From Candidatus Poribacteria bacterium (lineage in GTDB: Bacteria; Poribacteria; WGA-4E; WGA-3G): a DNA stretch of 32,533 nucleotides. Below are positions 8,631-32,007 of the stretch, piece by piece. The notes beneath the pieces were generated by a model. The model was not told the DNA's origin and ran no database searches. It was given only the letters and a program-made list of their open reading frames with translations. Where the stretch lies: NCBI GenBank assembly GCA_022822275.1, contig JAJEBZ010000074.1, forward strand, positions 1 to 32,533. The letters are read 5' to 3'. Within the stretch, counting starts at the first letter, position 1; each line of letters begins with the position of its first letter. Both the position numbers and the translations under genes were made by a program.

Positions 8631-8721
8631 TTTTCACCTATTTACTTACATCAATTACTTTACTATCTTTTTTGTCATGAACACGGATCAGTTTCAGCAA
8701 TGATAGAATTATCCAAAAAGT

Positions 8722-9771: not shown

Positions 9772-9901
9772 TATTTTTTACCTCCAATATCTCAGCTGCA
9801 TCGTCTACGCGAATTTCACCAGATAGTAACTTTGGCAATAGCGTGTCTCGAGTTTTGGCAAGCGTGCGGGATTCATTTTCATTAGATTCAATTTCGGTAT
9901 T
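9737..9901 (-). pseudogene. hsdS: 3' remnant of type I restriction specificity subunit (hsdS)
   Basis: A reading frame without a start codon opens after a TGA at 9902-9904. It runs 54 codons to a TGA at 9737-9739. It encodes ESNENESRTLAKTRDTLLPK followed by LLSGEIRVDDAAEILEV, the very typical C-terminal end of HsdS (distal coiled coil plus LLPKLLSGEIRV). The rest of HsdS (normally about 400 aa) and HsdM/HsdR are missing. The upstream side is occupied by a GC-rich dispersed repeat and then the sulfatase gene. Its 3' end overlaps the start of the 349-aa gene in another frame. A type I restriction operon was probably here and was cut back by deletion. Confidence 0.82.
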
Positions 9902-9914
9902 TCATAAGATGCTC

Positions 9915-9939
9915 GGTGCGGTTAGCAGCCGCGCCTACA
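9915..9939. repeat. GGTGCGGTT...GCGCCTAC dispersed repeat
   Basis: GGTGCGG (9915-9921) pairs with CCGCGCC (9929-9935) with one wobble, and the CCTACA tail matches the unit at 115-136. It lies immediately beyond the truncated end of the hsdS remnant, so it marks a possible deletion or recombination junction. Confidence 0.5.
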
Positions 9940-9990
9940 AGGAAATTGCACAAGTCCTATTAAAATTATACCACATTATAATCAGAATAT

Positions 9991-11448
9991 TCAACGTCCC
10001 GTAGATGGAGCTTGTGGCCAGTGGAGGCCGCGCTGTCCAGATAAACTACGGTTTGCAGAGGGACGATACGGTTTGTCTGGTAGTCCAACAAGTTCACCAT
10101 CTTGCACCCACTTTTCATCGCCACCATAGAGTTCACCGATGAGTAGGTTGGTTAATCGCTTAAGGATTTCAGCATGCGCGGGTGAATCGGATAGGTTGTT
10201 CAACTCTCTGGAGTCCTCCTCCAGATCAAAGAGTTGTCGGTAGTTTCCCATAGCGTAATAGATGAGTTTATAACGACCTTCATGGATCATGCGTGTGGCA
10301 CTGCTACCACTACCGACTTCTCCGTATAACCATTCACGTTTTTTGTCACCTACCATGGGCATGCCGTCAACTGTATCGGGTATATCAATGCCAGCAAGGT
10401 GGAGTAGCGTTGGCATAACGTCTTGCCATCCGACGAGGCGGTTGTCAACTCTGTTGTGTCCCACTCTTTCATCGCCTGCGGTGCCGACGAGAAGCATTGG
10501 CACGTTAGTGGAGTCTTCATAGTAGAGACGTTTTGCCCAAAGTCTATGGTTACCGAGCATGTCGCCATGGTCGGATGTAAACAGTATGATTGTGTTGTTC
10601 AACAATCCTTCTTCGCGGAGTGTACCGACAACGACACGCAATTGATGGTCAATGTGCGTGCAGAGTGCATAGAATGCTTGTCGTGCTGATCGGATTAGGT
10701 TTTCGCTGTATTGTGCATTCTGCATCTGTTTGGATTTGAGAGGTAAAGGCAGTTTATCGGAGTCTTTAGACCATTCTCCGTGATATGGCATCTCTATGTC
10801 AATATTGCGATACATATCCATGTAGCATTGAAGTGGTGCTAAGGGCGGATGTGGGTGGCAATAGGAGAGGAACCAGAAACCGGGTCTGGTTGGGTCGCGG
10901 CGTTTTATCTGCCGAACCATCTGTTGTGTGCTCCAGTTGGTGACGTGGCAGTCTTCGGGGAGGTGCCAAGGACGGTTGAGATAGTCGTTGTTGCACATGC
11001 CGTGTGCAAACTGCTGCCCCGCATAGCCTCTGTCTCCGAGGAAGAGTTCATAGTCGTCAATTACGCCATATTGTAATCTGCCTTCTTCACCTAAAATCAC
11101 ATCGTCAAATCCGATGCGGTCACGTTGTGGATAGACGTGGAGTTTGCCGACAGCGTGAGCCTGATATCCTGCATCGCGAAACGTCTGTGCGATGGTTGGC
11201 AGTCCATCTATTCCTTTTTTGTCGTTGAAAGTCCTGTCTTTGTGGGTGCGTGTTGTTGTGCCTGTCATCAAGGTCTTGCGTGCAGGGACACAAACAGGGC
11301 ATTCGCTGTATCCGTTGGTAAATCGGGTGCCTGCGCGGGCAAGTGAATCAAGGGTCGGGGTTTGGATATCTGGATGTCCATTGACTCCGAGCAGTGAGTT
11401 GGGCCAATGGTCTGTGCTAATTAGTAGGACATGGGGTTTGTCTGCCAT
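9991..11448 (-). CDS. sulfatase (arylsulfatase/alkaline phosphatase superfamily)
   Basis: This 485-aa type I sulfatase hydrolyses sulfate esters by family. The formylglycine site is C53-V-P-A-R57 (CxPxR) within ECPVCVPARKTLMTG, so activation needs a formylglycine-generating enzyme encoded elsewhere. The N-terminal metal-site strand VLLISTDHWPN (D13) and the second metal motif FTSDHGDMLGNH are present, followed by LWAKRLYYEDSTNVPMLL. No convincing signal peptide is seen, so a cytoplasmic location is likely unless the start is wrong. A GGAAGG sequence lies about 10 nt before the ATG. A promoter (11489-11517) lies upstream, so it is probably transcribed alone. The substrate, perhaps a sulfated polysaccharide or lipid, cannot be told from sequence. 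Confidence 0.93.
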   Translation of the reverse strand: MADKPHVLLISTDHWPNSLLGVNGHPDIQTPTLDSLARAGTRFTNGYSECPVCVPARKTLMTGTTTRTHKDRTFNDKKGIDGLPTIAQTFRDAGYQAHAVGKLHVYPQRDRIGFDDVILGEEGRLQYGVIDDYELFLGDRGYAGQQFAHGMCNNDYLNRPWHLPEDCHVTNWSTQQMVRQIKRRDPTRPGFWFLSYCHPHPPLAPLQCYMDMYRNIDIEMPYHGEWSKDSDKLPLPLKSKQMQNAQYSENLIRSARQAFYALCTHIDHQLRVVVGTLREEGLLNNTIILFTSDHGDMLGNHRLWAKRLYYEDSTNVPMLLVGTAGDERVGHNRVDNRLVGWQDVMPTLLHLAGIDIPDTVDGMPMVGDKKREWLYGEVGSGSSATRMIHEGRYKLIYYAMGNYRQLFDLEEDSRELNNLSDSPAHAEILKRLTNLLIGELYGGDEKWVQDGELVGLPDKPYRPSANRSLSGQRGLHWPQAPSTGR

Positions 11449-11488
11449 TGGGATGTTTCCTTCCTGTTACAGCAATATGTTTTTCATC

Positions 11489-11517
11489 ATCTTATCAAAT
11501 GCTGTGGGAATTGGCAA
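11489..11517 (-). promoter_or_regulatory. putative promoter for the sulfatase gene
   Basis: Minus strand: TTGCCA (11512-11517), 17-nt spacer, TAAGAT (11489-11494). The expected start is about 35 nt before the ATG at 11448. Two mismatches in the -10 and one in the -35 make it a moderate match. Confidence 0.5.
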
Positions 11518-11567
11518 GGAAAAAAGGAAGGGGCAAATATTTTCGCAAAATATGTTTTCAACTTGTT

Positions 11568-11681
11568 ATACCATTTCTATTAATTTTTGTCGCATTACCG
11601 GTTGTTAGAAATAAAACGGAATATGGCACAAACTAACAGTTTGTGCTACAGAAAAGGGACATTTATTATTAGAAATGGTAT
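11568..11681. repeat. 114-bp inverted-repeat element (MITE-like) carrying a GCACAAACT palindrome
   Basis: Terminal arms ATACCATTTCTA (11568-11579) and TAGAAATGGTAT (11670-11681) are perfect 12-bp inverted repeats, with further similarity outside and inside (TTATA, TTAAT). Within it lies GCACAAACT-aac-AGTTTGTGC (11626-11646), the same palindrome as at 187-236. The 12-mer ATACCATTTCTA appears again at 26904-26915 next to another palindromic block. The element carries no ORF. Its right end supplies the stop codon of the 41-aa ORF. Together with the sulfatase promoter it accounts for most of the 11449-11680 gap. Confidence 0.6.
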
Positions 11682-11806
11682 TATAATGCAGCCTCAGCAG
11701 GCATATTGGGAGAGGTTGCAGATGCATCAAGTTTCCAGAATAACCGTACTCCTCCGTAAATACACACTATGGAAACAATAAAGGTAAATATCAGGATGGA
11801 CTTCAT
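11681..11806 (-). CDS. small single-pass membrane protein, 41 aa
   Basis: A short ORF begins with an ATG that overlaps the TGA of the preceding 454-aa gene (ATGA, 4 nt), the classic arrangement for coupled translation. The peptide begins MKSILIFTFIVSIVCIYGGV, a hydrophobic segment (about residues 3-22). It continues RLFWKLDASATSPNMPAEAAL and then stops. It could be a small membrane protein or a short signal-peptide fragment. The stop lies exactly at the right arm of the 114-bp repeat element, so the 3' end may have been truncated by that insertion. No Shine-Dalgarno is seen, which is acceptable for a coupled gene. Function unknown. Confidence 0.5.
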   Translation of the reverse strand: MKSILIFTFIVSIVCIYGGVRLFWKLDASATSPNMPAEAAL

Positions 11807-13167
11807 TTTTCTGATGGTGTTCTGGGAGGAGTTGAACGTTTCGGTGGTCCCGATCTTTCCGGTGGACGCGGTGGCTGCGGCATCATCTCTCTACCTATTT
11901 TGCGTATCGCTTCCAGTTCTTTGATAACCTCTTGTAATTCTTTTAGGTCATTTGGTAATTCACCACCGTGGATTATTTGAAGTATTTCAAACCACTGTTG
12001 GATATTATGAGGGCCAGGGGGTTCAGGTGGCAGAATTTCAGGAGGAAATTGCCTCTTTGGCTCGGAATCTTTGGGACTTTTTACAGTTTCTTGCGTGTTT
12101 AACTGATCATCCGGATGTGTATGCGTGGGCGGCTGTTTATCCTGCTGTTGAACTGGTGCGATCTTGTCCGGGACAACTTGCTGTGTCTGTTGAGGTAACG
12201 AGTTTAGGAACGTCTCATGGTCTGCAATCAATTTTTGAACATTTGCTTGTGCTTCTTCTAAAGATTTCATTCTCCTTTCATAAAATCGAGGAGGCGGATT
12301 ACTCATAGGCAGGGGATTCCCTTTTTCGTCAGTATAGACAACTGTCATCCCCTTAGGAGCAACGCCGTACATTGTCAAATTCTTCTCCTGCTTTCGGGTT
12401 AGCTGCACACCAGTAAACCTTGAAATTGGTTTATCCTCTGAAATATAGACATATACAGTGTTCTCTGAAAACGGGGTGAACACACCATCTTGGTTCGTGA
12501 CACCGCCATCTATAGATGGATTCGCATCGCGCGCTCGTTGGTTGTAGTTTCCGGCAACAATATAATACTTGGTAATTACCTCTTCAAGTTCTTCCCAGGT
12601 TGCATCTGAAGGTAATCTATAACCACTAAGCACATCTGCTCTATCTTCCGGATTGTCAAAATCTCTTTTTGCCCACAGCATTCCATATCGTTTACTTACT
12701 GCCATTTTGTAGTCCCCAAAATCAAGGAAGGGGTTTCCCCAATTTCTCAAGTGTTCAAGCCATTCTTTCTTTGGATAGAGACTTTCAACAGATGCCTCAA
12801 GTGCACCGCCTCCTTCGTAAAACTCATACTTTTCATCCCATTTTTCTATCATTTCTGAGACGGTGAAGGGTTGATAATTCTTTCTAATAGCTGCAAGGTC
12901 AAGGTCTTTCCACTGTCGGAGCATAGGATGCTTCTCCGATATGATGTCGGGACGGAGAGGCTTAGATACATCTTCATCTGAGGACAGATGATATGTATGT
13001 GTATGCTCAACTATGTTACCTCCAGGTCCTTCATGTTGATGTGGTTCAGATGTAGAGATCTTTAGAACTGACTTTGCTTCTTTCTTTTGCGGAATTACAA
13101 AATAGATAGCAATTGCGATAACGATGACAAAGATTGATATCGAAATCAAAACGATCTGTTTTTTCAT
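11803..13167 (-). CDS. membrane-anchored His/Pro-rich hypothetical protein
   Basis: No family was recognised for this 454-aa protein. Residues 5-25 form one transmembrane segment or uncleaved signal (IVLISISIFVIVIAIAIYFVI). Next comes a His-rich linker (EPHQHEGPGGNIVEHTHTYH, about 41-60). A central Trp/Tyr-rich domain of about 250 residues follows (SEKHPMLRQWKDLDLAAI, LRNWGNPFLDFGDY). A low-complexity Gln/Pro region (about 330-400) contains a second His stretch (PPTHTHPDD), then a short helix (LPNDLKELQEVIKELEAIRKIG) and a Pro/Arg-rich tail. The topology suggests an extracytoplasmic protein tethered to the inner membrane. Metal binding is possible from the His clusters but unproven. GGGAG lies 11 nt before the ATG. 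It is followed by the coupled 41-aa ORF. Confidence 0.8.
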   Translation of the reverse strand: MKKQIVLISISIFVIVIAIAIYFVIPQKKEAKSVLKISTSEPHQHEGPGGNIVEHTHTYHLSSDEDVSKPLRPDIISEKHPMLRQWKDLDLAAIRKNYQPFTVSEMIEKWDEKYEFYEGGGALEASVESLYPKKEWLEHLRNWGNPFLDFGDYKMAVSKRYGMLWAKRDFDNPEDRADVLSGYRLPSDATWEELEEVITKYYIVAGNYNQRARDANPSIDGGVTNQDGVFTPFSENTVYVYISEDKPISRFTGVQLTRKQEKNLTMYGVAPKGMTVVYTDEKGNPLPMSNPPPRFYERRMKSLEEAQANVQKLIADHETFLNSLPQQTQQVVPDKIAPVQQQDKQPPTHTHPDDQLNTQETVKSPKDSEPKRQFPPEILPPEPPGPHNIQQWFEILQIIHGGELPNDLKELQEVIKELEAIRKIGREMMPQPPRPPERSGPPKRSTPPRTPSEK

Positions 13168-19886: not shown

Positions 19887-21344
19887 TTAAGATATAAATT
19901 TCCAAGTTGATCCTTCATGAGTGTCCTGAATTTCAATATTCAGTTGTTTCAGTCTATCACGGATTTTATCTGATGTATCCCAATCTTTTTGGTTTCGTGC
20001 GTCTTGTCTAATCTCTAATAGGAGTTCAAGCAGTGGATTGAGATATTCCGCGGTGTTGCTGGTATCCTCCTCGTTTTCTGTATAGATGCCAAGAACTTGA
20101 CAGGTTTCGTATAGGGTTTTACGGGCTTTTGCTAAAGTGTTTGAGGAAACACCGTTAGAATTTGCTATAGACTTATTAACGTGGCTGACAAGAGAGAAAA
20201 TTGCCCCCATTGCTTGTGCTGTATTGAAATCGGTATTCATAGCATCAGTAAATTGTGCCTGCATGTTCTCTATTGCCGAAAGAAGTGAGATGTCAGCTTT
20301 GGAAACATCTAACGTTTGCGTGGTTTTATCATCTGAGGTTTCGTTTGTATCTTCGTCATATTTTTTCAGTGTTTCTAAACAGTTGTTCAAACGTTTTAGT
20401 GCGGATTCAGATTTTTGCAGGCTTTCCAAACTGTAATCAAGTGGATGTCGGTATTGTGCAGAAATGAGAAAATGACGGATTGCTTCTGCGGGGTATCTGT
20501 CCAATGCGTCTCGTAAGAAGATAAAGTTTCTTTCAGATTTACCCATCCGTCTACCGTCTATTTTCAGGAACGCGACGTGGACCCAGTAACGCGCAAAGGG
20601 TTTGCCTGTTGCCAATTCGCTCTGTGCGATTTCGTTTTCGTGATGTGGGAACAGTAAGTCTTCACCTCCCGCATGGATATCAATCGTTTCACCCAGATGT
20701 TTCATCGCCATAGACGAACATTCTATATGCCATCCGGGTCTTCCGGGTCCCCATGGGCTCTCCCAATATGGTTCTCCCGGTTTTGCTGCCTTCCACATGT
20801 CAAAATCGCGCGGGTCTTCCTTACGTTTATCCACTTCAACGCGTGCACCTGCTAACAAATCCTCCGGTTTACGTCTGGATAGTTTGCCGTATTCACTGAA
20901 TTTATTGACGCGATAATAGACGCTACCATCAACGACATAAGCTGCGTCTTTATCAATAAGTGTTTGGATCAGGTCAATCATCTCTGAAATGTGTTCAGTC
21001 GCTTTCGGGTGTACATCTGCGGATTGGATTCCGAGTCTTTGTGTATCCTCAAAGTATGCTTCACAGTTCGACTGAGCAAGCTGGCTGGAACTGATACCGA
21101 GGGTTTGTGCCCGTGCAATAATCTTATCATCAATATCAGTTACATTTTGAACTAATTTGACAGTATATCCGCTGTATTCAAGATACCTTCTTATAATATC
21201 TGTAACGAGTGCTGTTCGAGCATTACCGATGTGTATATAATCATAGACGGTGGGACCGCAACTGTACATTGACACTTGTCCCTCCCTTAACGGTGTAAAA
21301 TCCTCAAGTTGTCGGCTAAGGGAATTATATATTTTCAATCCCAT
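19887..21344 (-). CDS. cysS: cysteinyl-tRNA synthetase
   Basis: Class I synthetase charging tRNA-Cys, 485 aa, the usual length. Zinc ligands C29, C209, H234 and E238 are all present (SCGPTVYDYIHIGN, WHIECSSMAM, FPHHENE). The HIGH motif is HIGN (38-41). The KMSKS loop reads RMGKS (266-270) in GRRMGKSERNF, an unusual form, though the key Lys is kept. The C-terminal anticodon-binding part ends with LLLEIRQDARNQKDWDTSDK and IRDRLKQLNIEIQDT. AAGGA lies 9 nt upstream of the ATG. It comes after ispF by 61 nt, in a conserved radA-yacL-ispD-ispF-cysS order. Confidence 0.97.
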   Translation of the reverse strand: MGLKIYNSLSRQLEDFTPLREGQVSMYSCGPTVYDYIHIGNARTALVTDIIRRYLEYSGYTVKLVQNVTDIDDKIIARAQTLGISSSQLAQSNCEAYFEDTQRLGIQSADVHPKATEHISEMIDLIQTLIDKDAAYVVDGSVYYRVNKFSEYGKLSRRKPEDLLAGARVEVDKRKEDPRDFDMWKAAKPGEPYWESPWGPGRPGWHIECSSMAMKHLGETIDIHAGGEDLLFPHHENEIAQSELATGKPFARYWVHVAFLKIDGRRMGKSERNFIFLRDALDRYPAEAIRHFLISAQYRHPLDYSLESLQKSESALKRLNNCLETLKKYDEDTNETSDDKTTQTLDVSKADISLLSAIENMQAQFTDAMNTDFNTAQAMGAIFSLVSHVNKSIANSNGVSSNTLAKARKTLYETCQVLGIYTENEEDTSNTAEYLNPLLELLLEIRQDARNQKDWDTSDKIRDRLKQLNIEIQDTHEGSTWKFIS

Positions 21345-21405
21345 TCAATTTTCCTTCATATATTGATGAACGCACATAAATTGTACAACAACGAAGCACA
21401 AAGAT

Positions 21406-21885
21406 TTATGATTGAGTTTTGGAAAGGCATACAACTGCTTGTGCTACGATTGCTTTTCCTTCACCTACAATTCCTAATCCTTCTGCGGTAGTTGCTTTCA
21501 CACTTACCTGTGTCTCTGTTATACCTAATGTTCTTGCGAGAACACGCCGCATTTGCGAGATATAGGGTGCCAATTTCGGTTTTTGTGCAATTACTGTGCT
21601 GTCAACGTTTTCAATTACATATTCTTGTTCTTTAATCTTCGCTGTGATAGTGCGAAGAAAAACTTGACTGTCCATTCCAGCGTAACTTTTGTCTGTATCT
21701 GGAAAATGTGTTCCGATGTCTCCTAACGCTGCTGCGCCTAAGATAGCATCACAGATGGCATGTGTCAACACATCCGCATCTGAATGTCCGAACAATCCTA
21801 AATGATAAGGAATTTCTACGCCGCCCAAAATTAGTTTTCTATTCTCAACAAGTTGATGAACGTCGTATCCGATTCCTATCCGCAT
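21406..21885 (-). CDS. ispF: 2-C-methyl-D-erythritol 2,4-cyclodiphosphate synthase
   Basis: IspF cyclises the CDP-ME2P intermediate of the MEP isoprenoid pathway. The 159-aa protein is full length. Metal ligands D8 and H10 lie in GYDVHQ and H42 in [11 protein letters not shown]. Other motifs are [18 protein letters not shown] and the C-terminal [22 protein letters not shown]. It starts 22 nt after ispD, so the two are co-transcribed and catalyse consecutive parts of the same pathway (IspE lies elsewhere). Confidence 0.97.
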
Positions 21886-21907
21886 CTTATGTCCAATATA
21901 TTATACC

Positions 21908-22651
21908 TTATGTTCTATCATTTAGCAAAGTTTCGGCGATCTGCAAATCTTCTGTTGTGGTTATTTTTATATTTTTATAGCTGCCCATTACCAATTTTAC
22001 AGGTATCCCGAGTATTTCAACTAATGCAGCGTCATCAGTTGCACATATTCCATCCTGAATTGCCTTTCTGTGTGCTTCTACCAGTAAAGATTTTCGAAAG
22101 ACTTGTGGTGTCTGTACTCGCCACAACCGATCTCTATCTGGTGTCCGATCAATGAAATTGTCAGCGTTTGCGATTTTAATAGTTTCTTTTACAGGCACAG
22201 CAGAAACACTGGCACCGTATTTTGCTGCTGCATTGAGACATGCGAATATTATGTCGTCCTTGATAAAGGGACGTACGCCATCATGGACAGCAACATAATC
22301 TACATCATTTGAGATCGAACGAAGTCCGTTGAATACAGAATCTTGACGTGTTTTTCCGCCCGGTACCAATTCACGGACCTTCTTATATTGATAAGGCATA
22401 AGTACGTTTTTTCTGCAAGTATCAAGATCGGCTGCATTTACAATTACAAGGATTTCATCAATGACACTGTTCTGTTCAAACTGATCTATTGTATGGGACA
22501 AAATTGGTTTATCACCTAACATTAGATAGGGTTTTCTGATGGACGATTCCATGCGGCTGCCTTGTCCTGCAGCAGCGATGAGTACGGATATTTTGGAGTT
22601 CGTTAAAGTCCAACCGAGTGATTTATCCGTATCCGACTTTGTTTCAATCAT
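21908..22651 (-). CDS. ispD: 2-C-methyl-D-erythritol 4-phosphate cytidylyltransferase
   Basis: IspD attaches CMP to methylerythritol phosphate in the MEP pathway. The 247-aa protein has the nucleotide-binding signature LIAAAGQGSRMESSIRKPYL (about 24-43), then VPGGKTRQDSVFNGL, VAVHDGVRPF, WRVQTPQVFR and TDDAALVE. About 18 residues precede the core, a slightly longer N-terminus than usual. The ATG overlaps the TGA of the YacL-like gene by 4 nt (ATGA), which indicates coupling. A later start is possible but the overlap supports this one. Confidence 0.96.
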   Translation of the reverse strand: MIETKSDTDKSLGWTLTNSKISVLIAAAGQGSRMESSIRKPYLMLGDKPILSHTIDQFEQNSVIDEILVIVNAADLDTCRKNVLMPYQYKKVRELVPGGKTRQDSVFNGLRSISNDVDYVAVHDGVRPFIKDDIIFACLNAAAKYGASVSAVPVKETIKIANADNFIDRTPDRDRLWRVQTPQVFRKSLLVEAHRKAIQDGICATDDAALVEILGIPVKLVMGSYKNIKITTTEDLQIAETLLNDRT

Positions 22652-23652
22652 CGAATTCCCTTCTGTGGAAAAGGTTCATCTGCATTCCTTGCGAAAATCA
22701 TCTGTCCGGTGCTGGTTCGCAACATCTGTGTAACCACAACATCAAGTGTTTGTCCGATAAGCGTTTTACCGTCTTCAACGATCACCATGGTTCCATCATC
22801 AAGATAACCTACACCCTGATTTGGTTCTTTACCGATTTTCTGTAAATGTACTTGGATGATTTCTCCTGCAATAACAATCGGACGGATTGCATTTGCTAAT
22901 TCGTTGATATTTAGCACTGTGACACCCTGCAATTCAGCGACTTTGTTTAGGTTTAGATCGTTTGTAATGATTTTAGCGAAATGTTTTTTTGCAAGGTGAA
23001 CGAGTTTCGCATCTACTTCATCAAGGTGTGGAACATCTTCTTCAATAATTTCAACAGCGATAGATGGACTGTTTTGGAGTGAACGTAAAATATCAAACCC
23101 CCGACGTCCCTTATTTCTTCGCAATAAATCGTTTGAATCAGCAATATGTTGTAACTCATTTAGAACAAAACGTGGAATCATAAGTGTCCCATCAATAAAT
23201 TGTGTTTCACAGATTTCAAGTATACGTCCATCAATAATCACACTTGTATCTAAGATTTTAAAACCATTGGAATCATTTGTAGCATAAGACGATCCCATCT
23301 GTGTATAACGGTGTGAATTGAATAACCTGACGATGGGTAGACTTTCAGATAGATAGTAGCCACAAATCATTCCAATATAACCACACCCGATCATAAGGAT
23401 GTTTCTCAATAAGATAGAGTCCGGTTGATTTATGAGTTGGAGCAATCCTTGAGAGATCAATAAACCGAATGCGAGTCCTACGATGCCTGCTACAAATCTA
23501 CGTGTAGTAGGTATACGCAGATAATATTCAAACACAACAAGGATTATTGCAACACCAAACCCAATACCAGCATGAAAGAAGTTAGTATCTGGTAAATAGC
23601 ACAAGACACCGCTTATGATTACAAAAGCGAAACGAATAATCTTAATTTGCAT
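22648..23652 (-). CDS. YacL-like PIN and TRAM domain membrane protein
   Basis: This 334-aa protein resembles B. subtilis YacL. Four hydrophobic segments lie at about residues 5-22, 27-45, 52-72 and 85-102. A PIN-type ribonuclease domain follows with the acidic residues D135 (KILDTSVIIDGRIL), E166 (RFVLNELQHIAD), D214 (LDEVDAKLVHLA) and D232 (IITNDLNLNKVA). A TRAM domain (about 262-320) ends the protein. Known members are membrane-attached putative nucleases; the target RNA is unknown. In Firmicutes it sits between disA or radA and ispD, and here it directly precedes ispD with a 4-nt overlap. The Shine-Dalgarno is weak. A 262-nt gap with no gene separates it from radA. Confidence 0.88.
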   Translation of the reverse strand: MQIKIIRFAFVIISGVLCYLPDTNFFHAGIGFGVAIILVVFEYYLRIPTTRRFVAGIVGLAFGLLISQGLLQLINQPDSILLRNILMIGCGYIGMICGYYLSESLPIVRLFNSHRYTQMGSSYATNDSNGFKILDTSVIIDGRILEICETQFIDGTLMIPRFVLNELQHIADSNDLLRRNKGRRGFDILRSLQNSPSIAVEIIEEDVPHLDEVDAKLVHLAKKHFAKIITNDLNLNKVAELQGVTVLNINELANAIRPIVIAGEIIQVHLQKIGKEPNQGVGYLDDGTMVIVEDGKTLIGQTLDVVVTQMLRTSTGQMIFARNADEPFPQKGIR

Positions 23653-23914
23653 AGTTCTTTTCTGCGACCGGTTGTAGCGATGAAATTCTTATCATCACTA
23701 ATTTGAGATTTGTTCCGTAGTTCGTTATCAGCATTATATCATGATGGTGTTGTTACTTTCTAACGAATTACCTATTTCTACGAGAACTCTATGAATTTTC
23801 GATCATTAGTTACAGAACCTTGCAGTCCTTGTTTGGGCGAACATTTGATATGTTAAAAGAACTTTTTGAATGTTAACTTGTATGCAGCAAGAATTTATCG
23901 TTTATTTTAAGATT

Positions 23915-25276
23915 TTACACTAATATTTTTAGACTGTCATAAATATTCTTTACGCTTATGAGTTCAATTGTCTCTGTTACATCTATACTTTTCTGATTGT
24001 ATTCTGGAAAAACAGCTCTTGAGAATCCGAGTTTTGCTGCTTCATTTATCCGTCTTTCAATGTGGGGTACGGGGCGAATTTCACCTCCTAACCCGACTTC
24101 TCCAATTATGACAGTCCGGGGATCAATTGGTTTGTTTTGATAGTTTGATATAATAGCCATTAACACACCGAGATCAATACCTGGTTCATCAATCCGTATT
24201 CCACCGGTAATGTTGACAAAGACATCGGAGTCACCAATATCCAGTCCGACACGTTTATTTAAGACTGCGATCAGCAGTGCGACGCGGTTGCGGTCAATCC
24301 CTGTTGCTGTGTTGCGCGGTGTGCCGTAGTGTGTTTGAACGACTAATGCTTGCACCTCTAACAGCAACGGACGAGTGCCTTCCATGCTTGAAACGACTAC
24401 GGAACCAGAAATATTCTCTTCTCTATCGCTCAAAAAGAGTTGTGATGGATTTTTGACATCTACTAACCCTTTGTTTTGCATCTCAAAAATACCGAGTTCA
24501 TTTGTTGACCCGAATCGATTTTTTGTCGCACGTAGCACGCGATATATGTGGTGTCGTTCTCCTTCAAAATAGAGTACTGTATCTACTATATGTTCTAAAA
24601 CCCGTGGTCCTGCTAAATTTCCCTCTTTTGTCACATGTCCAACGAGAAAAATTGGTATGTTCTGTTTTTTGGCACAAATTAGGAGTTGTGCAGCACATTC
24701 TCGAATCTGTGTGATGCTTCCTGGTGCCGATTGGAAGTCCGTTAGGTAGACTGATTGTATTGAGTCAATCACAACTGCTTGTGGTTGTAGTTTTTCAATC
24801 TGTGTTTCAATCTGTTCTAAATTATTTTCGCACAGGACATAGAGCGTATCGGAATTCACACCGAGTCGGTTTGAGCGTATCTTCGTCTGGTTTACGGATT
24901 CTTCACCGGAAACATAAAGCACATTGCCATATTTGCGGCTGAGTGCGTCGCTTGCTTGTAGCAATAGTGTGGATTTACCTATACCTGGATCGCCACCGAT
25001 TAGGATTACGGACCCGGGTACAATTCCACCGCCTAAGACCCTATCAAATTCGGGCATCCCAGTAAATTGTCGCTCTACATCTGTCGCTGTTACGTGAGCA
25101 ATAATTTCTGGTGTGTTAGATTGGTGGCTAATAACACGATGCAAAGGAGATGTAGGAACGACTTCAGTTTCTTCGGTAAAACTGTTCCATGCCTGACAGC
25201 TCGGGCATTTTCCGAGGCCTCTCGGTGTTGTGTAGCCACATTCTTGACAGACAAATTTGTGCTTTGCTTGAGCCAT
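23915..25276 (-). CDS. radA: DNA repair protein RadA (Sms)
   Basis: RadA is a RecA-like ATPase that drives branch migration at recombination intermediates. The 453-aa form begins with the conserved MAQAKHKFVCQECG zinc finger (C10, C13, C24, C27). It continues with Walker A GGDPGIGKST (94-103), the RadA-specific KNRFG (252-256) and the C-terminal Lon-protease-like domain (NITGGIRIDEPGIDLGVLMA). The upstream in-frame ATG at 25345 would overlap mlaD by 40 nt and add 23 unusual residues, so I prefer 25276. Only a weak GGA precedes it. It follows mlaD by 29 nt, so it could be read from the Mla unit. Confidence 0.96.
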   Translation of the reverse strand: MAQAKHKFVCQECGYTTPRGLGKCPSCQAWNSFTEETEVVPTSPLHRVISHQSNTPEIIAHVTATDVERQFTGMPEFDRVLGGGIVPGSVILIGGDPGIGKSTLLLQASDALSRKYGNVLYVSGEESVNQTKIRSNRLGVNSDTLYVLCENNLEQIETQIEKLQPQAVVIDSIQSVYLTDFQSAPGSITQIRECAAQLLICAKKQNIPIFLVGHVTKEGNLAGPRVLEHIVDTVLYFEGERHHIYRVLRATKNRFGSTNELGIFEMQNKGLVDVKNPSQLFLSDREENISGSVVVSSMEGTRPLLLEVQALVVQTHYGTPRNTATGIDRNRVALLIAVLNKRVGLDIGDSDVFVNITGGIRIDEPGIDLGVLMAIISNYQNKPIDPRTVIIGEVGLGGEIRPVPHIERRINEAAKLGFSRAVFPEYNQKSIDVTETIELISVKNIYDSLKILV

Positions 25277-25305
25277 ATCTATCCGCTTTTTTGCTGTAGA
25301 CCTTT

Positions 25306-26877
25306 CTACCAATCGCTTGTAATTAATTTGAATCCTGTTATCCAACGTCTATCATCACTCCACCAGTTTTCAACCCCTACGAGAAAATGTCCTCCTCCGA
25401 AGAAACGTAAACTCATTTCTGCGTTCAGTTCTGGTTTGTCACTTGTGAGTCCAATGCTTTCAATACTGATGCCTAACCGGCGTGCCAATAACCAAAGGTC
25501 AGCACCGACCCCAAAATTGGAGCGCATGAAACCGAACCTACCTTGAAGATAGTTTGTGAAATTATGTGCATATTGGATTTCAACTCCGATGTTCTCTTCT
25601 CTAATACCGAGACCAAAGCGATAGAGGTTTTTTGAAGGGGGTAATGGTATTAGCGAGAAGCCAAATTCCGTGTGTAAATTCTCCTCAAGACTTAGATAGC
25701 GCAATTCGGCATCCAATGAAAAATCGGGTAGTTTTAAGCCTTTTATTTGTTCGTCTGTTTGTCTATAATACCTTTTTAAGCCAGTAATCACCTCATTCAG
25801 GCTATCAAAAGTTTCTTGGACATGTGTAAAAGGTTCTGGATTATTGAGAAGTTGTGCAACGGTACCCTCCCCATGTTTTATGGTATTCAACAGTTCGCTG
25901 ATGTTAGCTTCTAAAGTCGTGATAGCCTCTGTTGCCGTTTGAAGATTGTCTAAGATAGGTTGAACATTTGTACTGCCCTTTTCAATAAACGTACTGCCCT
26001 TTGCAACCAACTCAGAAACATCGGTTGTCAAAGTGCTGAAGTCTTTTCGGAATTGTGTTGCTAAACGTTGAAACTCGGTGGTACCTTGCTGCATATCTGA
26101 GAGTATTTTGTCTACTTTGGGAAAATTCTGGTCAACAAGGACTAACATTGAGCGGCTTAAGTCACTGATTTGGCTACTGAGAATTAAGGAGTCATCACCA
26201 AGTTGCCTTATCAGTTCGTTCACATTATCCAATGTTTCTGCAAAACGTTTGTCGTTTTTCGCTGCCAGCTCCATCACAGTGCCGACTGTCGTATCCATGT
26301 TTTGGTTGAATTTTTTCAACGTTTCTCCTGTTAATGCAACTAATGCTCTTGTTTCTTTGATGCCTTGTTGAATTTCTTCCTGATTAGCTTGAAGTAATTC
26401 GTTTGCTGCGGAAGTCAAGTCAATAGCTTTACTCAGTCCGGAGCTTGTTTGCTCAAGCAGTTCCAATGGATTTACGGGGTCTATTCCGACAATCGGCAGA
26501 TCCGATGGTTGCAGCGTTGGGTTATCGATAGCCCCGTTGTGTAATGCGATATATGTTTCACCTACAAAACCACTCATTGATATTCGTGCGTCACAACCTT
26601 GTCTAAGCCACTTAAAAGCGTTCCTTACGCGCGCACGGATTTCCACTGTATTTGTTTCTGGTTGCAGTTCAATACTTGTTACCTTACCGATTGAGACACC
26701 AGAAAGATAAACCCCAGAACCGACATATAGTCCATTTACAGCCTGAAATTCGAACTTTATGTTATCCCCGGGAGTTCCCCAAGGTAAGTTGCCAGAATTG
26801 ATAAGGAGAATAGCAAGTAGGGTTATGGCAATAAAAAGCATCAGTCCTACTTTTACTGACGGAGTCCAGAATTTCAT
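25306..26877 (-). CDS. mlaD: MlaD/MCE-domain lipid transport protein with C-terminal beta-rich domain
   Basis: The 523-aa protein carries lipid between membranes together with MlaE and MlaF. It has an N-terminal inner-membrane anchor (about 8-27) and an MCE domain (about 38-118: GLYVGSGVYLSGVSIGKVTSI, then MSGFVGETYIALHNG). A long helical stretch follows (about 130-385: ELLEQTSSGLSKAIDL, MDTTVGTVMELAAK and more). The C-terminal ~130 residues have alternating hydrophobic and polar strands (LYRFGLGI, VGVEIQYAHNF, YLQGRFGFM, FGVGADLWLL) and end in an aromatic. This is longer than the classic E. coli MlaD (about 183 aa). The C-terminus resembles an outer-membrane beta-barrel, as described for some diderm Firmicutes MlaD proteins, which would let one protein span the envelope. 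AAAGGG precedes the ATG. Confidence 0.88.
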   Translation of the reverse strand: MKFWTPSVKVGLMLFIAITLLAILLINSGNLPWGTPGDNIKFEFQAVNGLYVGSGVYLSGVSIGKVTSIELQPETNTVEIRARVRNAFKWLRQGCDARISMSGFVGETYIALHNGAIDNPTLQPSDLPIVGIDPVNPLELLEQTSSGLSKAIDLTSAANELLQANQEEIQQGIKETRALVALTGETLKKFNQNMDTTVGTVMELAAKNDKRFAETLDNVNELIRQLGDDSLILSSQISDLSRSMLVLVDQNFPKVDKILSDMQQGTTEFQRLATQFRKDFSTLTTDVSELVAKGSTFIEKGSTNVQPILDNLQTATEAITTLEANISELLNTIKHGEGTVAQLLNNPEPFTHVQETFDSLNEVITGLKRYYRQTDEQIKGLKLPDFSLDAELRYLSLEENLHTEFGFSLIPLPPSKNLYRFGLGIREENIGVEIQYAHNFTNYLQGRFGFMRSNFGVGADLWLLARRLGISIESIGLTSDKPELNAEMSLRFFGGGHFLVGVENWWSDDRRWITGFKLITSDW

Positions 26878-26903
26878 TGTTTTTCCCTTTAGTATAGTAG
26901 ATT

Positions 26904-27012
26904 ATACCATTTCTATATGATAAAATTACATTATTCGTAGGTCGGGTTGAAGCGGTAGCGAAACCCAGCTTTTTATAGCGTTATGTCGGGTTTCGTTCCT
27001 CAACCCGACATA
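26904..27012. repeat. palindromic repeat element between mlaF and mlaD
   Basis: ATACCATTTCTA (26904-26915, also seen at 11568) is followed by arms GTCGGGTTGA (26941-26950) and TCAACCCGAC (27000-27009). Internal GCGAAACCC and GGGTTTCG can also pair. The ~110-bp block splits the Mla genes by 259 nt. There is no ORF in it. It fits a dispersed non-coding element, perhaps with a role in differential expression of mlaD versus mlaF. Confidence 0.55.
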
Positions 27013-27136
27013 CAGTATATAGTAAATTATGTAAATAAGTTTACATATATTCTGTAGAAGCGATCTCCGAATCATAACGTGGACACTATGAGAATAGAAA
27101 ATAATCTGCTGTTTTCAAATTCAGGAGTCAAAAATA

Positions 27137-27925
27137 TCATTCAGTCTGTCTACCTGTAAATTCTTTCAATGTCGGGTTGTCAATGTTTAGTATCTGGTCT
27201 GGTGCACCAAAAAGGATAAACTGTTGCAGTATTGGGTTTTCTTCGTTAATCAAATCCTCTGGTTTTCCATAGGCAATTTGCTTCCCTTCGTGCAGCATCA
27301 CCATCAACGTTCCTACGCTAAATGCACTGTGCATATCATGTGTGACGACCACAGAGGTTACTTGTAATTGCTGATTTAGGTCGCGAATCAGTTCGTTAAT
27401 TTCAGTACAGGTAACCGGATCCAACCCTGTTGTAGGTTCGTCGTATAAGATGATTTCAGGGTTGAAAGCGAGTGCCCGTGCAAGCCCGACCCGTTTCCGC
27501 ATTCCTCCACTGAGTTGAGCTGGACGTAAATCCTGAACACCATCTAAATCCACTAAATTCAATTTTTCATCTACAACCTTACGCATCTCCTGTTCAGTTA
27601 AATCGGTATGTTGGTCAAGCATAAATGCGATATTTTCAGCGACGCTCATTGAATCGAATAGGGCTGCAGACTGAAATAGCATCCCGATTTTTCGCCGTAT
27701 CTGATTCAAAGGTTTTCTCTTAAGCTGGGTGATTTCTGTGCCGTCAATCCAAACTTCACCTGCATCTACAGAAAGTAGCCCAGCAATTATCTTGAGTAGG
27801 ACACTTTTTCCACAACCGCTTCGTCCCATAATTACGAGGGATTCACCCCGCGGTATTTCAAGGTCAAAGCCGTTTAAGACTATTTTTTCATCAAATGCTT
27901 TTCGGACGTTTTTTACTGAAATCAT
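27137..27925 (-). CDS. mlaF: Mla-type ABC transporter ATP-binding protein
   Basis: This 262-aa protein is the ATPase of the MlaFEDB-type phospholipid transporter. Motifs are Walker A GRSGCGKSV, Q-loop in GMLFQSAALFDSMSVAEN, signature LSGGMRKRVGLARAL, Walker B IILYDEPTTGLDP and the switch VVTHD. The family-typical C-terminus is present. It lies between mlaE (44-nt gap) and mlaD (gap holding a repeat element). No Shine-Dalgarno is obvious at the ATG. No MlaB (STAS) gene is adjacent, and whether the STAS protein at 5850-6200 serves that role is unknown. Confidence 0.94.
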   Translation of the reverse strand: MISVKNVRKAFDEKIVLNGFDLEIPRGESLVIMGRSGCGKSVLLKIIAGLLSVDAGEVWIDGTEITQLKRKPLNQIRRKIGMLFQSAALFDSMSVAENIAFMLDQHTDLTEQEMRKVVDEKLNLVDLDGVQDLRPAQLSGGMRKRVGLARALAFNPEIILYDEPTTGLDPVTCTEINELIRDLNQQLQVTSVVVTHDMHSAFSVGTLMVMLHEGKQIAYGKPEDLINEENPILQQFILFGAPDQILNIDNPTLKEFTGRQTE

Positions 27926-27969
27926 AAGGACAAACTTCTAATATTCTGAATCTGAAATATCGCACTTTC

Positions 27970-28794
27970 CTATACCAAACCCAGAATGTTGAAAAGTATA
28001 TGGTTTAGTACAAAATCTAAGACTAAGATAGTAACCAGTGAGATAACAGCAGAACCAGTAGTGGCAGTACCGACACCTTCTGCACCGCCAGCGGTTGAAA
28101 TACTGAAACCCTTATAGCAACCGATTGCAGCTATTGCCATACCGAATGAAGTGGCTTTGATTAAACTAATCAACACACTTCCAACATATAGGTATTTCTG
28201 TACCTGCAATATGTAAAAATCACCATTGAAACCAAATAGTGAAACCACTGCCACATAACCGCCGAAAATTCCAGCAAATGTTGAAAAGATTGTCAGGGTT
28301 GGGAGCATAATTGAACAAGCAAGAAACCTTGGAACAACAAGGTGTTTTACAGGATTTGTTCCCATCACTTCCAGTGCATCTATCTGTTCGGTGACCTTCA
28401 TCGTTGAAAGTTCCGCAGTAATTGAGGCTCCGATTCGTCCCGAAAGCACAAACGCTGTTATCATAGGTCCCAGTTCTTTGACAACAGAAACACTGACAAA
28501 CTTGGCAACTGATCCCTCAACTGCATACGGTTTCAACTGAACATATCCCTGAATACCCAATACCATTCCAGTGAAGAAACCGGAGACTAAAACGACCGAC
28601 AACGAATTAAAACCGATGAGCAACAGCTGTTTCATTAACAGGTTAAATTGTAACGGTGGTCTAAAAATTTGGAAAATAGTTTCGGCAAGTAGACGAAATG
28701 CATCACCCGTTTCTGAAAGGGAATGGTAAAGGCGTTTTTTGATGATGGTTGCGAATTCGTTTGAAGGAGCAGGATCAGAAGGCGGATTGCTCAT
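27970..28794 (-). CDS. mlaE: MlaE-type phospholipid transport permease
   Basis: This 274-aa integral membrane protein has the MlaE domain, with about five membrane segments after an amphipathic N-terminal helix (residues 20-45). Recognisable stretches are SGFFTGMVLGIQGYVQL, VVKELGPMITAFVLSGRIGA, the DALEVMGTNPVKHLVVPRFL loop and KATSFGMAIAAIGCYKGF. The ATG at 28794 is preferred over a TTG at 28809. It is the first gene of the mlaE-mlaF-mlaD set, 94 nt after dnaB, so transcription may continue from the ribosomal-protein operon. Confidence 0.94.
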   Translation of the reverse strand: MSNPPSDPAPSNEFATIIKKRLYHSLSETGDAFRLLAETIFQIFRPPLQFNLLMKQLLLIGFNSLSVVLVSGFFTGMVLGIQGYVQLKPYAVEGSVAKFVSVSVVKELGPMITAFVLSGRIGASITAELSTMKVTEQIDALEVMGTNPVKHLVVPRFLACSIMLPTLTIFSTFAGIFGGYVAVVSLFGFNGDFYILQVQKYLYVGSVLISLIKATSFGMAIAAIGCYKGFSISTAGGAEGVGTATTGSAVISLVTILVLDFVLNHILFNILGLV

Positions 28795-28888
28795 AGCAAA
28801 ATGTTCCAATCAAAGTTCATAAAATCAATTTCATGAAATTACGAGATACACATATTTTGAATCTGTCGCATCTGAGTTGAAATAATTC

Positions 28889-30229
28889 TTATTGGCTGAC
28901 ATTATCAAAACGCATCTGTTTTTTGTAAAAATGTAGAACAATTGTTCCTGTAGGACCGTTCCGCTGTTTTTTTATCAATATATTTGCTTCAACATTTTCG
29001 TCCGTGTAATCACTCTCTTCGTCGTAATAGTCTTCCCTGTATAGGAAAGCGACCAGGTCGGCATCTTGTTCTATTGCACCGGATTCCCGCAGATCAGAGA
29101 GTTGTGGTTGTTTGTTCGGTCGGCGTTCAACTTCTCTACTGAGCTGGGAACAGGCAATGACAGGAACGTTCAATTCCCAAGCAAGTATTTTTAGTGCCCG
29201 TGAAATTTCAGAAATCTCCTGTTCACGTGCATGATAACGGCTTGTGCCTCGCAGCAGCTGTAGGTAGTCAACGATAATCAGCGACAAGTTTTCATGTTCG
29301 CTCTTTAATCGTCTCCCTTCAGCAAGTAAGCCTTGCACGGTCAAAGCGCGATTGTCATTGATTAAGATAGGGGCATTACCGAGACGACTAACGCCTTGTC
29401 CCAATGGTCTCCATCTTTCCTCACCAAAATTGCCTGCCCGTAGTTTTCCGAAATCAATTCTTGTTTCAGCGGATAGCATGCGTAGCGCGATATCTTGGGC
29501 AGGCATTTCAAGACTAAAGATTGCTACCGGACGATCCTGTTCAAGCGCGATATTTTGCGCCATATTTAACACAAGCGTTGTTTTGCCCATGCTTGGACGG
29601 GCAGCAATAATAATCAGGTTGCCCGCTTGCAAACCAGAGGTCATGTAGTCAAAATCTATAAAACCTGTTGGAACTCCTAAAAATCTTTCTTTTTTATGAT
29701 AGAGTTTTTCTACTGCCTGAATACCCTCTTTGAGCAGTGTTTTGATATGTGCAAACCCGCGTTTTGCGTCGCTCTTACCTAATTCAAAAACTTCCTCTTG
29801 TGACAAATTGAGGACATCACCGATCTCAATACTTTCATCCTGAGCATAATCACGAATTTGGTCAGTAGCTCGGATTAACCTACGACGTGTCGCTTTTTCT
29901 CGTACAATTTCTGCATAGAACTCAGCACTTTCCGTTTCAACAATTGGGGCTTGCAGTTCATATAGGTAGTCTGCACCACCGACTCTGTTCAGTTGTTGAG
30001 TTCGATTTAATTCGTTAGCGACAAGTATCGGATCAGCTTTATTAACACGGCCAAACACAGAAAGAATCGCATTATAGATCAACTGGTGGTCAGTTGTGAA
30101 AAACGCATCGGACGTAGGTCCTAACAGTGCCTCAATCTGTGGGATAATGGACTTTTCTGTCATCATTGACCCAAGCACTGCCTGTTCAGCTTCTTTGTCC
30201 ATAAGGGAATCGAATGCTGATGTTTGCAT
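28889..30229 (-). CDS. dnaB: replicative DNA helicase DnaB
   Basis: DnaB unwinds DNA at the replication fork. The 446-aa protein has the N-terminal domain (about 10-110: EAEQAVLGSMM, RVGGADYLYEL), a linker, and the RecA-like C-terminal domain. Walker A is ARPSMGKTT (210-218), the SLEMPAQDIALRML helix follows, Walker B is LIIVDYLQLL (317-326), and DLRESGAIEQDAD leads to the C-terminal ILIKKQRNGPTGTI. No intein or insertion is present. It ends the rpsF-ssb-rpsR-rplI-dnaB group. GGAAGAG lies 3 nt upstream of the ATG. Confidence 0.97.
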   Translation of the reverse strand: MQTSAFDSLMDKEAEQAVLGSMMTEKSIIPQIEALLGPTSDAFFTTDHQLIYNAILSVFGRVNKADPILVANELNRTQQLNRVGGADYLYELQAPIVETESAEFYAEIVREKATRRRLIRATDQIRDYAQDESIEIGDVLNLSQEEVFELGKSDAKRGFAHIKTLLKEGIQAVEKLYHKKERFLGVPTGFIDFDYMTSGLQAGNLIIIAARPSMGKTTLVLNMAQNIALEQDRPVAIFSLEMPAQDIALRMLSAETRIDFGKLRAGNFGEERWRPLGQGVSRLGNAPILINDNRALTVQGLLAEGRRLKSEHENLSLIIVDYLQLLRGTSRYHAREQEISEISRALKILAWELNVPVIACSQLSREVERRPNKQPQLSDLRESGAIEQDADLVAFLYREDYYDEESDYTDENVEANILIKKQRNGPTGTIVLHFYKKQMRFDNVSQ

Positions 30230-30300
30230 GACTCTTCCACCTCCGACGACTGAACACCCGAATTGTCCAATGATAGAATAATATCCTTATAGGAAAGGTC

Positions 30301-30753
30301 TTATGATTCTTCCCTTTCAACTACCACGCGTAGTTCCGTTGTCACATCTGTGTGTAGTTTGACGGTGACTGTAAACGCACCGAGTTCGCGAATCGGTTCA
30401 GAGAGTTCAATGTAACGTCTATCTATTTCAATGTTAGCCGCTGCCCGTAACGACTCAACGATATCCGCGGGCGTAACGGAACCGAACAGCCTGTCATTTT
30501 CCCCCGCACGTCTTGTGAGATGACAAGTGACATCAACGATTTGCGCGGCAATTTCGCGAGCGTGTTCTCTATCTTTTGATTCTTGCCGGTCAATTTCGCG
30601 TTTTTGATGTTCAAGGAATTTGCGATTTCGCTCCGTTGCATGTACCGCTAACTGTTTCGGTAGCAGGTAGTTACGTGCATAACCATCTGCGACATTTAGC
30701 ACATCTCCCGGGGAACCCAGTCCTTCAATGTTCTTTTTTAGTATGATTTCCAT
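30301..30753 (-). CDS. rplI: 50S ribosomal protein L9
   Basis: L9 binds domain V of 23S rRNA. The 150-aa form starts MEIILKKNIEGLGSPGDVLN, matching the family N-terminus, so ATG 30753 is chosen over ATG 30762 (three residues longer). VADGYARNYLLPKQLA is the signature. The N-domain and C-domain are joined by the usual long helix rich in Lys/Arg/Glu (RKFLEHQKREIDRQESKDRE). It sits between rpsR and dnaB, as in many bacteria. Confidence 0.96.
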   Translation of the reverse strand: MEIILKKNIEGLGSPGDVLNVADGYARNYLLPKQLAVHATERNRKFLEHQKREIDRQESKDREHAREIAAQIVDVTCHLTRRAGENDRLFGSVTPADIVESLRAAANIEIDRRYIELSEPIRELGAFTVTVKLHTDVTTELRVVVEREES

Positions 30754-30834
30754 GTTTTCCATCCAAGTAGTGCAGAACTCGTTGAGATGGTTATCTCAGA
30801 TAGAGCACTACATTCTCATTTGTATGTGCAAGAT

Positions 30835-31035
30835 TTAAGTCGTAAATGGTAATAAAGCCATATTTCGTGCACGTTTGATAGCACGTGTGATCATCCTTTG
30901 TTGTTTCGCTGAGAGCCCAAAAACACGACGGCTTACAATCTTGCCACGTTCGTTGATAAACTTCTCCAGTGTATTAACATCTTTGTAGTCTACGGATTCT
31001 AACTTACTGTAACGATTTCTCCGACGATATTGCAT
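30835..31035 (-). CDS. rpsR: 30S ribosomal protein S18
   Basis: This short (66-aa) S18 has the family core [20 protein letters not shown] then [20 protein letters not shown] and ends [10 protein letters not shown]18 pairs with S6 on the 30S platform; their genes lie in the same operon here. AAGGAG lies 10 nt upstream of the ATG, within the 20-nt gap after ssb. Confidence 0.96.
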
Positions 31036-31055
31036 AATTCAGTATCTCCTTCCGA

Positions 31056-31520
31056 TTAGAACGGAATATCATCCGATGTTGATGTATCATCACTCTCAGT
31101 TGTTGAAGGTGTAGAAGTTTGATCGGTTGGTGGGACATTTGAAGGTGTGGCTTGTGTGTATCCACCGCCGCCTTCATCTCCATCTCGTCTACCGCCAATT
31201 AACTGAAGTCTGAACACCCTAACTTTTAGTTTATTTCGTTTTTCACCTTCGGGTGTTTCCCATGAATCAAACCTGAGAGATCCTTCAATAAAGACTGGAC
31301 TCCCTTTACTCAGATATTCGTTTACAATTTCTGCTTGCCTGTCCCACGCCTCTACATCAACAAAGCAGACATTTTCTCTCTGTTCACCAGTTTGCCGGTC
31401 AGTGTAACGCTCACTCATAGCCATCCCAAAATTTGCTACTGCTGTTCCACTCGGTAGATATTTCATTTCAGGATCTCGTGTAAGATTCCCCAATAATATG
31501 ACTCTGTTATAACTTGCCAT
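31056..31520 (-). CDS. ssb: single-stranded DNA-binding protein
   Basis: This 154-aa protein has the OB fold: MASYNRVILLGNLTRDPEMK at the N-terminus, then GTAVANFGMAMSE, CFVDVEAWDRQAEIVNEYL and LKVRVFRLQLIGG. A flexible Gly/Thr/Pro linker ends in the acidic tip DDIPF that binds partner proteins. It protects ssDNA and recruits repair and replication proteins. The upstream GAGGA lies 8 nt before the ATG. Placement between rpsF and rpsR is standard. Confidence 0.97.
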   Translation of the reverse strand: MASYNRVILLGNLTRDPEMKYLPSGTAVANFGMAMSERYTDRQTGEQRENVCFVDVEAWDRQAEIVNEYLSKGSPVFIEGSLRFDSWETPEGEKRNKLKVRVFRLQLIGGRRDGDEGGGGYTQATPSNVPPTDQTSTPSTTESDDTSTSDDIPF

Positions 31521-31590
31521 GATTATGTTCCTCTATCTATAGATGTCCCGATTTAAGACTAATGGGACACCTGTTTGTGATGATGTATAT

Positions 31591-32007
31591 TTATTCAGAT
31601 TCTGCAGCGGTTACATCAGTCTCCATTGAATCTTCTACAGTTTCTGTTGTGTCTTCGGTAGTATCATCGTCTTTTACTTCAGGTGCTTCCTCTTCTGTTT
31701 GTGCTGTTTTCAACTTTTCAACATCGTCTTCATATAGCACAATCATGTGTCGTAAAATTGCTTCAATAACTCGGAGTGCTTGGTTCAACTGTGCAACGAA
31801 ACTGGGGTCACACTCAAATACATAGACTACGTAGTAACCTTCGCTGCGTTTCCGTATCGGGTAGGCGAGCCGCCTCTTTCCCCAAACATCAATATTGATG
31901 ATATTTCCGCTACCTTCAATTATACCCTTGACATTTTCAATGAGGGCATCTGCTTCATTTTCCTCATGGTCAGGGGTAATGATCAGCATAAGTTCGTAAG
32001 GTTTCAA
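31591..32007 (-). CDS. rpsF: 30S ribosomal protein S6
   Basis: S6 forms a pair with S18 on the 30S subunit. The 138-aa protein has MKPYELMLIITPDHEENEAD, then WGKRRLAYPIRKRSEGYYVVY and LRVIEAILRHMIVLYED. The final ~35 residues form an acidic Thr/Glu/Asp-rich tail, a common variable extension. The start codon is TTG (32007) with AGAGAGGA about 7 nt upstream. A promoter (32128-32156) and a hairpin leader precede it. It is the first gene of the rpsF-ssb-rpsR-rplI-dnaB operon. Confidence 0.96.
   Translation of the reverse strand: MKPYELMLIITPDHEENEADALIENVKGIIEGSGNIINIDVWGKRRLAYPIRKRSEGYYVVYVFECDPSFVAQLNQALRVIEAILRHMIVLYEDDVEKLKTAQTEEEAPEVKDDDTTEDTTETVEDSMETDVTAAESE

What the first reader, a model, noticed from the sequence alone, without database searches (positions are those of the whole stretch)
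25306..26877. MlaD with long helical stalk and C-terminal beta-barrel-like domain
The protein is much longer than the classic MlaD. After the MCE domain and ~250 helical residues come ~130 residues with alternating strands ending in an aromatic residue. No mlaA, mlaB or mlaC is nearby. Known: an MlaD that spans the envelope with its own outer-membrane barrel was described in the diderm Firmicute Veillonella. The same minimal MlaEFD design here, in a probably unrelated phylum, supports an ancestral trans-envelope bridge.
Basis: partly seen in the sequence, partly recalled or inferred. Interest (0 to 1): 0.6.

Follow-up and report, generated by a model that had tools for sequence, protein, structure and literature searches.

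The report
Poribacterial lipid bridge with barrel anchor

Summary
ORF 25306-26877 (minus strand, 523 aa) is a long MlaD: TM helix 6-27, MCE domain 38-132, helical stalk 137-377 and a C-terminal domain whose AlphaFold2 model has exactly ten strands (385-519; pLDDT 88.9). That domain's best PDB fold matches are transmembrane beta-barrels, including a designed ten-strand barrel. Its strands alternate strongly between hydrophobic and polar residues, it is under purifying selection, and it is retained in the most divergent members of the phylum searched. The genome is Candidatus Poribacteria. MlaE and MlaF are adjacent. No MlaA or MlaC was found in 85 Poribacteria genomes, while MCE and LpxC genes occur in 82 of 85. 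The mlaEFD genes sit between dnaB and radA across the phylum, so the system looks vertically inherited. Their main text does not name Poribacteria. The ancestry claim is only consistent with this case; I could not compare the two barrels by sequence. Some Poribacteria also carry a second, barrel-less MlaEFD.

The parts
25306..26877 (-). mlaD, long (trans-envelope type), 523 aa
   Evidence: Pfam PF02470 E 3e-16; only MCE-domain gene in the genome; relatives in 57 of 60 related genomes
26797..26862 (-). N-terminal transmembrane helix, residues 6-27 (inner-membrane anchor)
   Evidence: AF2 full-length model, helix 6-27; hydrophobic sequence
26482..26766 (-). MCE domain, residues 38-132
   Evidence: Pfam match 37-113; AF2 strands mostly at pLDDT 80-90; sequence match to solved MlaD 7ch8 and 6zy2
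25747..26469 (-). helical stalk, residues 137-377, with conserved GxGT motif at 336-339
   Evidence: AF2 secondary structure, low pLDDT as a monomer; one coherent 3.55-residue hydrophobic period over 137-335; G336 invariant in A1
25309..25725 (-). C-terminal ten-strand beta-barrel, residues 385-523 (strands 385-519)
   Evidence: AF2 pLDDT 88.9, pTM 0.78, 10 strands; best Foldseek hits are transmembrane barrels; in/out alternation; pN/pS about 0.2
27137..27925 (-). mlaF, ABC ATPase, 262 aa
   Evidence: PF00005; best NCBIfam match is MlaF PRK11831, below its cut-off
27970..28809 (-). mlaE, permease, 279 aa
   Evidence: PF02405 E 8e-70; TIGR00056 above cut-off; only MlaE in the genome

Best explanation
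This is a three-component MlaEFD lipid ABC transporter whose MlaD is a homo-oligomeric, presumably hexameric, trans-envelope bridge. The TM helix and MCE ring sit on MlaE in the inner membrane. The roughly 200-residue amphipathic helices (137-335) would assemble into a tube with a hydrophobic lumen, and each subunit would end in a ten-strand barrel inserted in the outer membrane. Powered by MlaF, it would carry glycerophospholipids through the tube, most likely retrograde (OM to IM), removing them from the LPS leaflet without MlaA or MlaC. The barrels probably anchor and dock the tube rather than conduct lipid, since one face of their strands, the inner one if it is an OM barrel, is lined by charged and polar side chains. 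Shown by computation: gene content, domain layout, barrel fold, conservation. Inferred from relatives: hexamer, tube, substrate, direction.
For: Domain layout matches V. parvula MlaD as published (TM, MCE, stalk, ten-strand barrel; PMC10665443). Barrel model and fold matches; dyad alternation 2.00 against 0.83 +/- 0.18 in shuffles, none of 10,000 reaching it. No MlaA or MlaC in 85 genomes. LpxC in 82 of 85, so lipid A is probably made and there is an LPS leaflet to police. Omp85 genes that could insert barrels, and a TamB next to one of them. Conserved mlaEFD synteny. Purifying selection on the barrel.
Against: The stalk has pLDDT below 50 in the monomer model and no oligomer could be modelled. 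A straight 137-335 helix would be about 30 nm, longer than a typical 20-25 nm periplasm (general knowledge), so it must bend, or the periplasm is wide. About 90% of MlaDs lack a barrel (PMC10665443), so the barrel is not generally needed for transport. Direction and substrate are untested in any poribacterium; to my knowledge none is in culture.
Confidence: 0.75

Rival explanations
1. The barrels are the conduit: several subunits' C-terminal strands fuse into one larger barrel (TolC-like) that opens a lipid path through the outer membrane.
For: Raised by Grasekamp et al. for V. parvula. In M. smegmatis Mce1 the six chains share one small barrel (same paper). Those authors note that a hexameric ring of barrels has not been described.
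Against: The monomer forms a confident ten-strand barrel on its own that matches closed monomeric barrels. A shared barrel would usually leave isolated strands with poor confidence.
Confidence: 0.12
2. The C-terminal domain is a soluble periplasmic beta-barrel or sandwich, for example a lipid-binding or peptidoglycan-docking cap, and MlaD ends short of the outer membrane.
For: Hydrophobic/polar alternation by itself also occurs in soluble barrels. One soluble barrel (4tq2, a phycobiliprotein lyase) is among the fold matches at E 0.011. No Pfam or NCBIfam model covers the domain.
Against: The four matches with E below 0.001 are all transmembrane barrels (6x9z, 8uzl, 4fqe, 4pr7). Most of the proteins end in an aromatic residue, and several divergent members end GVRLNY, GLRTDY or similar, which fits the OM beta-signal. 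The V. parvula domain fractionates with the OM (PMC10665443).
Confidence: 0.08
3. The transporter works anterograde (IM to OM), or carries a lipid other than phospholipid such as a hopanoid or sponge-derived sterol.
For: Direction of Mla has been debated (PMC10212509, title), and Mce relatives are implicated in fatty acid and cholesterol transport (PMC9882608, abstract).
Against: V. parvula mla phenotypes and their suppression by tamB fit retrograde transport (PMC10665443). A TamB is present here for the opposite direction.
Confidence: 0.15

Closest known systems
MlaD of the MlaEFD system of Veillonella parvula (Grasekamp et al. 2023, PMC10665443)
   Same: TM helix, one MCE domain, long helical stalk, C-terminal ten-strand barrel; mlaEFD together; no MlaA or MlaC; a TamB in the genome
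   Different: 523 against 419 residues, with a stalk of about 240 against 150 residues; gene neighbourhood is dnaB/radA/isp instead of tolC/tamB; phylum Poribacteria; no experimental localisation
E. coli MlaD / MlaFEDB
   Same: MCE domain, MlaE permease and MlaF ATPase homologous
   Different: E. coli MlaD is 183 residues, has no stalk or barrel, and works with MlaA, MlaB and MlaC; TIGR04430 (MlaD equivalog) score 69 is under its 135 cut-off
Mycobacterial Mce1 (8fed)
   Same: MCE domain plus long helices forming a periplasm-spanning needle; sequence match over TM, MCE and part of the stalk
   Different: heterohexamer of Mce1A-F; no full barrel per subunit
Barrel-less long MlaD paralogue of some Poribacteria (loci L115-L122)
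   Same: MCE domain and long helices, with own mlaE and mlaF
   Different: about 443-486 aa, several GEGT-like repeats, ends NPKKYVxFSLF or close to it; no hit to the barrel profile

Membership tests
Long, barrel-bearing trans-envelope MlaD (V. parvula type) | Single MCE domain after one N-terminal TM helix | tested here: met
   Pfam PF02470 at 37-113; helix 6-27 and MCE strands 38-132
Long, barrel-bearing trans-envelope MlaD (V. parvula type) | Extended helical region between MCE and C-terminus | tested here: met
   Helices 137-377; coherent 3.55 period
Long, barrel-bearing trans-envelope MlaD (V. parvula type) | C-terminal ten-strand transmembrane barrel | tested here: met
   By prediction: ten strands, pLDDT 88.9; TM barrels as best fold matches, 8uzl TM-score 0.62/0.65
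Long, barrel-bearing trans-envelope MlaD (V. parvula type) | Operon with mlaE and mlaF, no mlaA or mlaC | tested here: met
Long, barrel-bearing trans-envelope MlaD (V. parvula type) | Barrel homologous in sequence to the V. parvula barrel | not tested
Long, barrel-bearing trans-envelope MlaD (V. parvula type) | Hexamer spanning both membranes | not testable with these tools
   Only monomer prediction was available
Canonical six-component Mla system (E. coli) | MlaA and MlaC present | tested here: not met
   0 of 85 genomes each, with E. coli and Caulobacter ringing as controls
Canonical six-component Mla system (E. coli) | MlaB (STAS) partner | tested here: inconclusive
   None beside mlaEFD in the window and no STAS fusion on MlaE; not searched genome-wide

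The most novel reading that the evidence does not exclude
The barrel-bearing MlaD was present in the last common ancestor of Poribacteria and is homologous to the Terrabacterial one, so a barrel-tipped bridge existed before the split of the Poribacteria/PVC/FCB part of the tree. The barrel-less MlaDs of PVC and FCB would then be losses, and the Poribacteria that carry both types would record the replacement.
Probability: 0.3. Interest if true: 0.5.

Novelty: new member of a known kind. Interest (0 to 1): 0.3.

Why it matters
It extends the minimal MlaEFD bridge with an OM barrel to a phylum not named in the published main text. Poribacteria have been placed close to PVC, one of the two groups (PVC, FCB) in which the published survey found no barrel at all. 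Genomes holding both a barrel-bearing and a barrel-less MlaEFD offer a natural test of what the barrel is for. It does not change the known picture of how the system works.

Tried and rejected
Soluble C-terminal fold: rejected on fold matches. Complete mlaABC elsewhere in the genome or phylum: MlaA and MlaC not found. Known domain family for the barrel: no significant Pfam, NCBIfam or PDB sequence match. Search for barrel-type MlaD outside Poribacteria in plasmid and viral collections: nothing usable. LptD Pfam model found nothing in the genome, but the same model also missed the Bacteroides control, so it says nothing. Full-length AF2 model: the stalk is not interpretable. A strict beta-signal pattern matched only 8 of 64 rows; by eye the window's clade has a short tail after the last strand, so the signal is only supporting evidence in divergent members. 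One search used a mis-spaced pattern and is void; one search is the valid version.

Full report
What is there. On the minus strand, 25306-26877 encodes a 523-residue protein with an ATG start and an AAAGGG Shine-Dalgarno-like stretch upstream. Pfam places an MlaD/MCE domain at residues 37-113. Upstream in the same direction lie mlaF (27137-27925) and mlaE (27970-28809, PF02405 E 8e-70, TIGR00056 above cut-off). This is the only MCE-domain gene and the only MlaE found in the 4.5-Mb, 96%-complete genome.

Which organism. A scan of named genomes gave 55 loci, all Candidatus Poribacteria, the closest 97% identical in protein sequence. The phylum was once placed in PVC; single-cell genomics put it outside but near PVC (PMC3909097), and NCBI lists it as incertae sedis.

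Domain anatomy. The full-length AF2 model has a TM helix at 6-27, MCE strands 38-132, helices 137-377 and ten strands from 385 to 519. The stalk has pLDDT below 50; the V. parvula authors also could not model theirs confidently. Hydrophobicity over 137-335 shows one coherent period of 3.55 residues, as expected of a single amphipathic helix facing a tube lumen or bundle core. If straight it would be about 30 nm, which is long for a periplasm. The GxGT motif at 336-339 marks a break before a last helix (347-377).

The C-terminal domain. Modelled alone with an alignment of 54 poribacterial sequences it reaches pLDDT 88.9 and pTM 0.78, with exactly ten strands. Foldseek against the PDB gives four matches with E below 0.001, all transmembrane barrels (two KdgM porin entries, two de novo designs). 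The best structural overlap is the designed ten-strand barrel 8uzl, TM-score 0.62/0.65. Averaged over the alignment, alternate residues of the strands differ in hydrophobicity by 2.00 against 0.83 +/- 0.18 after within-strand shuffling, none of 10,000 shuffles reaching it. One face is mostly hydrophobic and the other rich in D, E, R, S, Q and G. Which face is outward follows from the fold matches, not from the alternation. 57 of 64 alignment rows end in W, Y or F. pN/pS of the barrel against same-genus relatives is about 0.14-0.20, against 0.11-0.16 for the MCE domain, so it is maintained. No Pfam, NCBIfam or PDB sequence family describes it.

Distribution. MCE domains are found in 82 of 85 Poribacteria genomes, MlaA in 0 of 85, MlaC in 0 of 85 and LpxC in 82 of 85. 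The E. coli and Caulobacter controls rang for MlaA and MlaC. The order rpsF-ssb-rplI-dnaB-mlaE-mlaF-mlaD-radA-PIN/TRAM-ispD-ispF-cysS is kept across the 55 loci almost without exception, as far as contigs reach (ispF and cysS named by reading their sequences). The two most distant members of the phylum searched (L123, L124) have full-length MlaD that match a barrel profile at E 2e-34 and 6e-30, and their mlaEFD genes also lie beside radA (L124) or between dnaB and radA (L123) (gene identities there read from the sequences). This is what vertical descent from the phylum's ancestor predicts.

A contrast within the phylum. Seven genomes of one family (G038, G043, G044, G046-G049) and G052 carry an MlaD of about 443-486 residues with its own mlaE and mlaF where the contig reaches. 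The two sequences read in full have several GEGT-like repeats; all eight end in a variant of NP(K/E)(K/R)YV.(F/L)SLF, and none hits the barrel profile. From memory this ending resembles Bacteroidetes MlaD; that was not tested.

How it likely works. By analogy with V. parvula, where the isolated barrel fractionates with the OM and the TM-MCE part with the IM (PMC10665443), the protein would bridge the envelope and return phospholipid to the IM using MlaEF. This would replace MlaA and MlaC. Supporting context here: Omp85 genes that could insert the barrel and a TamB next to one of them, the proposed opposing pathway. Oligomer, lumen, substrate and direction are inferred, not shown.

Novelty. The architecture, its breadth (about 10% of MlaDs, across diderm Terrabacteria and some Proteobacteria and relatives, none in PVC or FCB) and the ancestral-bridge proposal are published (PMC10665443). 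No paper in the library holds both 'Poribacteria' and 'MlaD', and that paper's main text does not name Poribacteria, though its supplement may; supplements could not be read. This is a new member of a known kind in a further phylum. Whether it strengthens the ancestral claim depends on barrel homology, which I could not test for want of a reference sequence.

Noticed in passing
L115-L122 (second MCE genes in genomes G038, G043, G044, G046-G049, G052): A barrel-less MlaD of about 443-486 aa with its own mlaE and mlaF, several GEGT-like repeats and an NPKKYVxFSLF-like end. In G047 (88% complete) it is the only MCE gene found.
   Followed up: partly
window 26937-27013: Imperfect palindromic element (14-nt arms, 93% complementary, 49 nt apart) in the 259-bp mlaF-mlaD gap. 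Its core motif is absent from the 97%-identical relative (L003/L053), so it looks like a recent REP-like insertion.
   Followed up: partly
window 19887-32007: mlaEFD is embedded in a housekeeping block (rpsF, ssb, rplI, dnaB, radA, PIN/TRAM, ispD, ispF, cysS) conserved across the phylum.
   Followed up: yes
L126 (G000:C296) 4575-13000: Omp85 protein (1046 aa frame) next to a TamB (at least 1765 aa), a TamAB-like pair, away from mla.
   Followed up: no
L125 (G048:C590) 747-2654: A different MCE protein (410 aa, ends NPSALIFGK) beside a 225-aa protein that may be an auxiliary lipoprotein; a third system or contamination of that MAG.
   Followed up: no
window 23915-25345: The mechanical radA ORF starts at a TTG inside the 3' end of mlaD; the likely true start is the internal Met at about 25276 (MAQAKHKFVCQECGY).
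   Followed up: no
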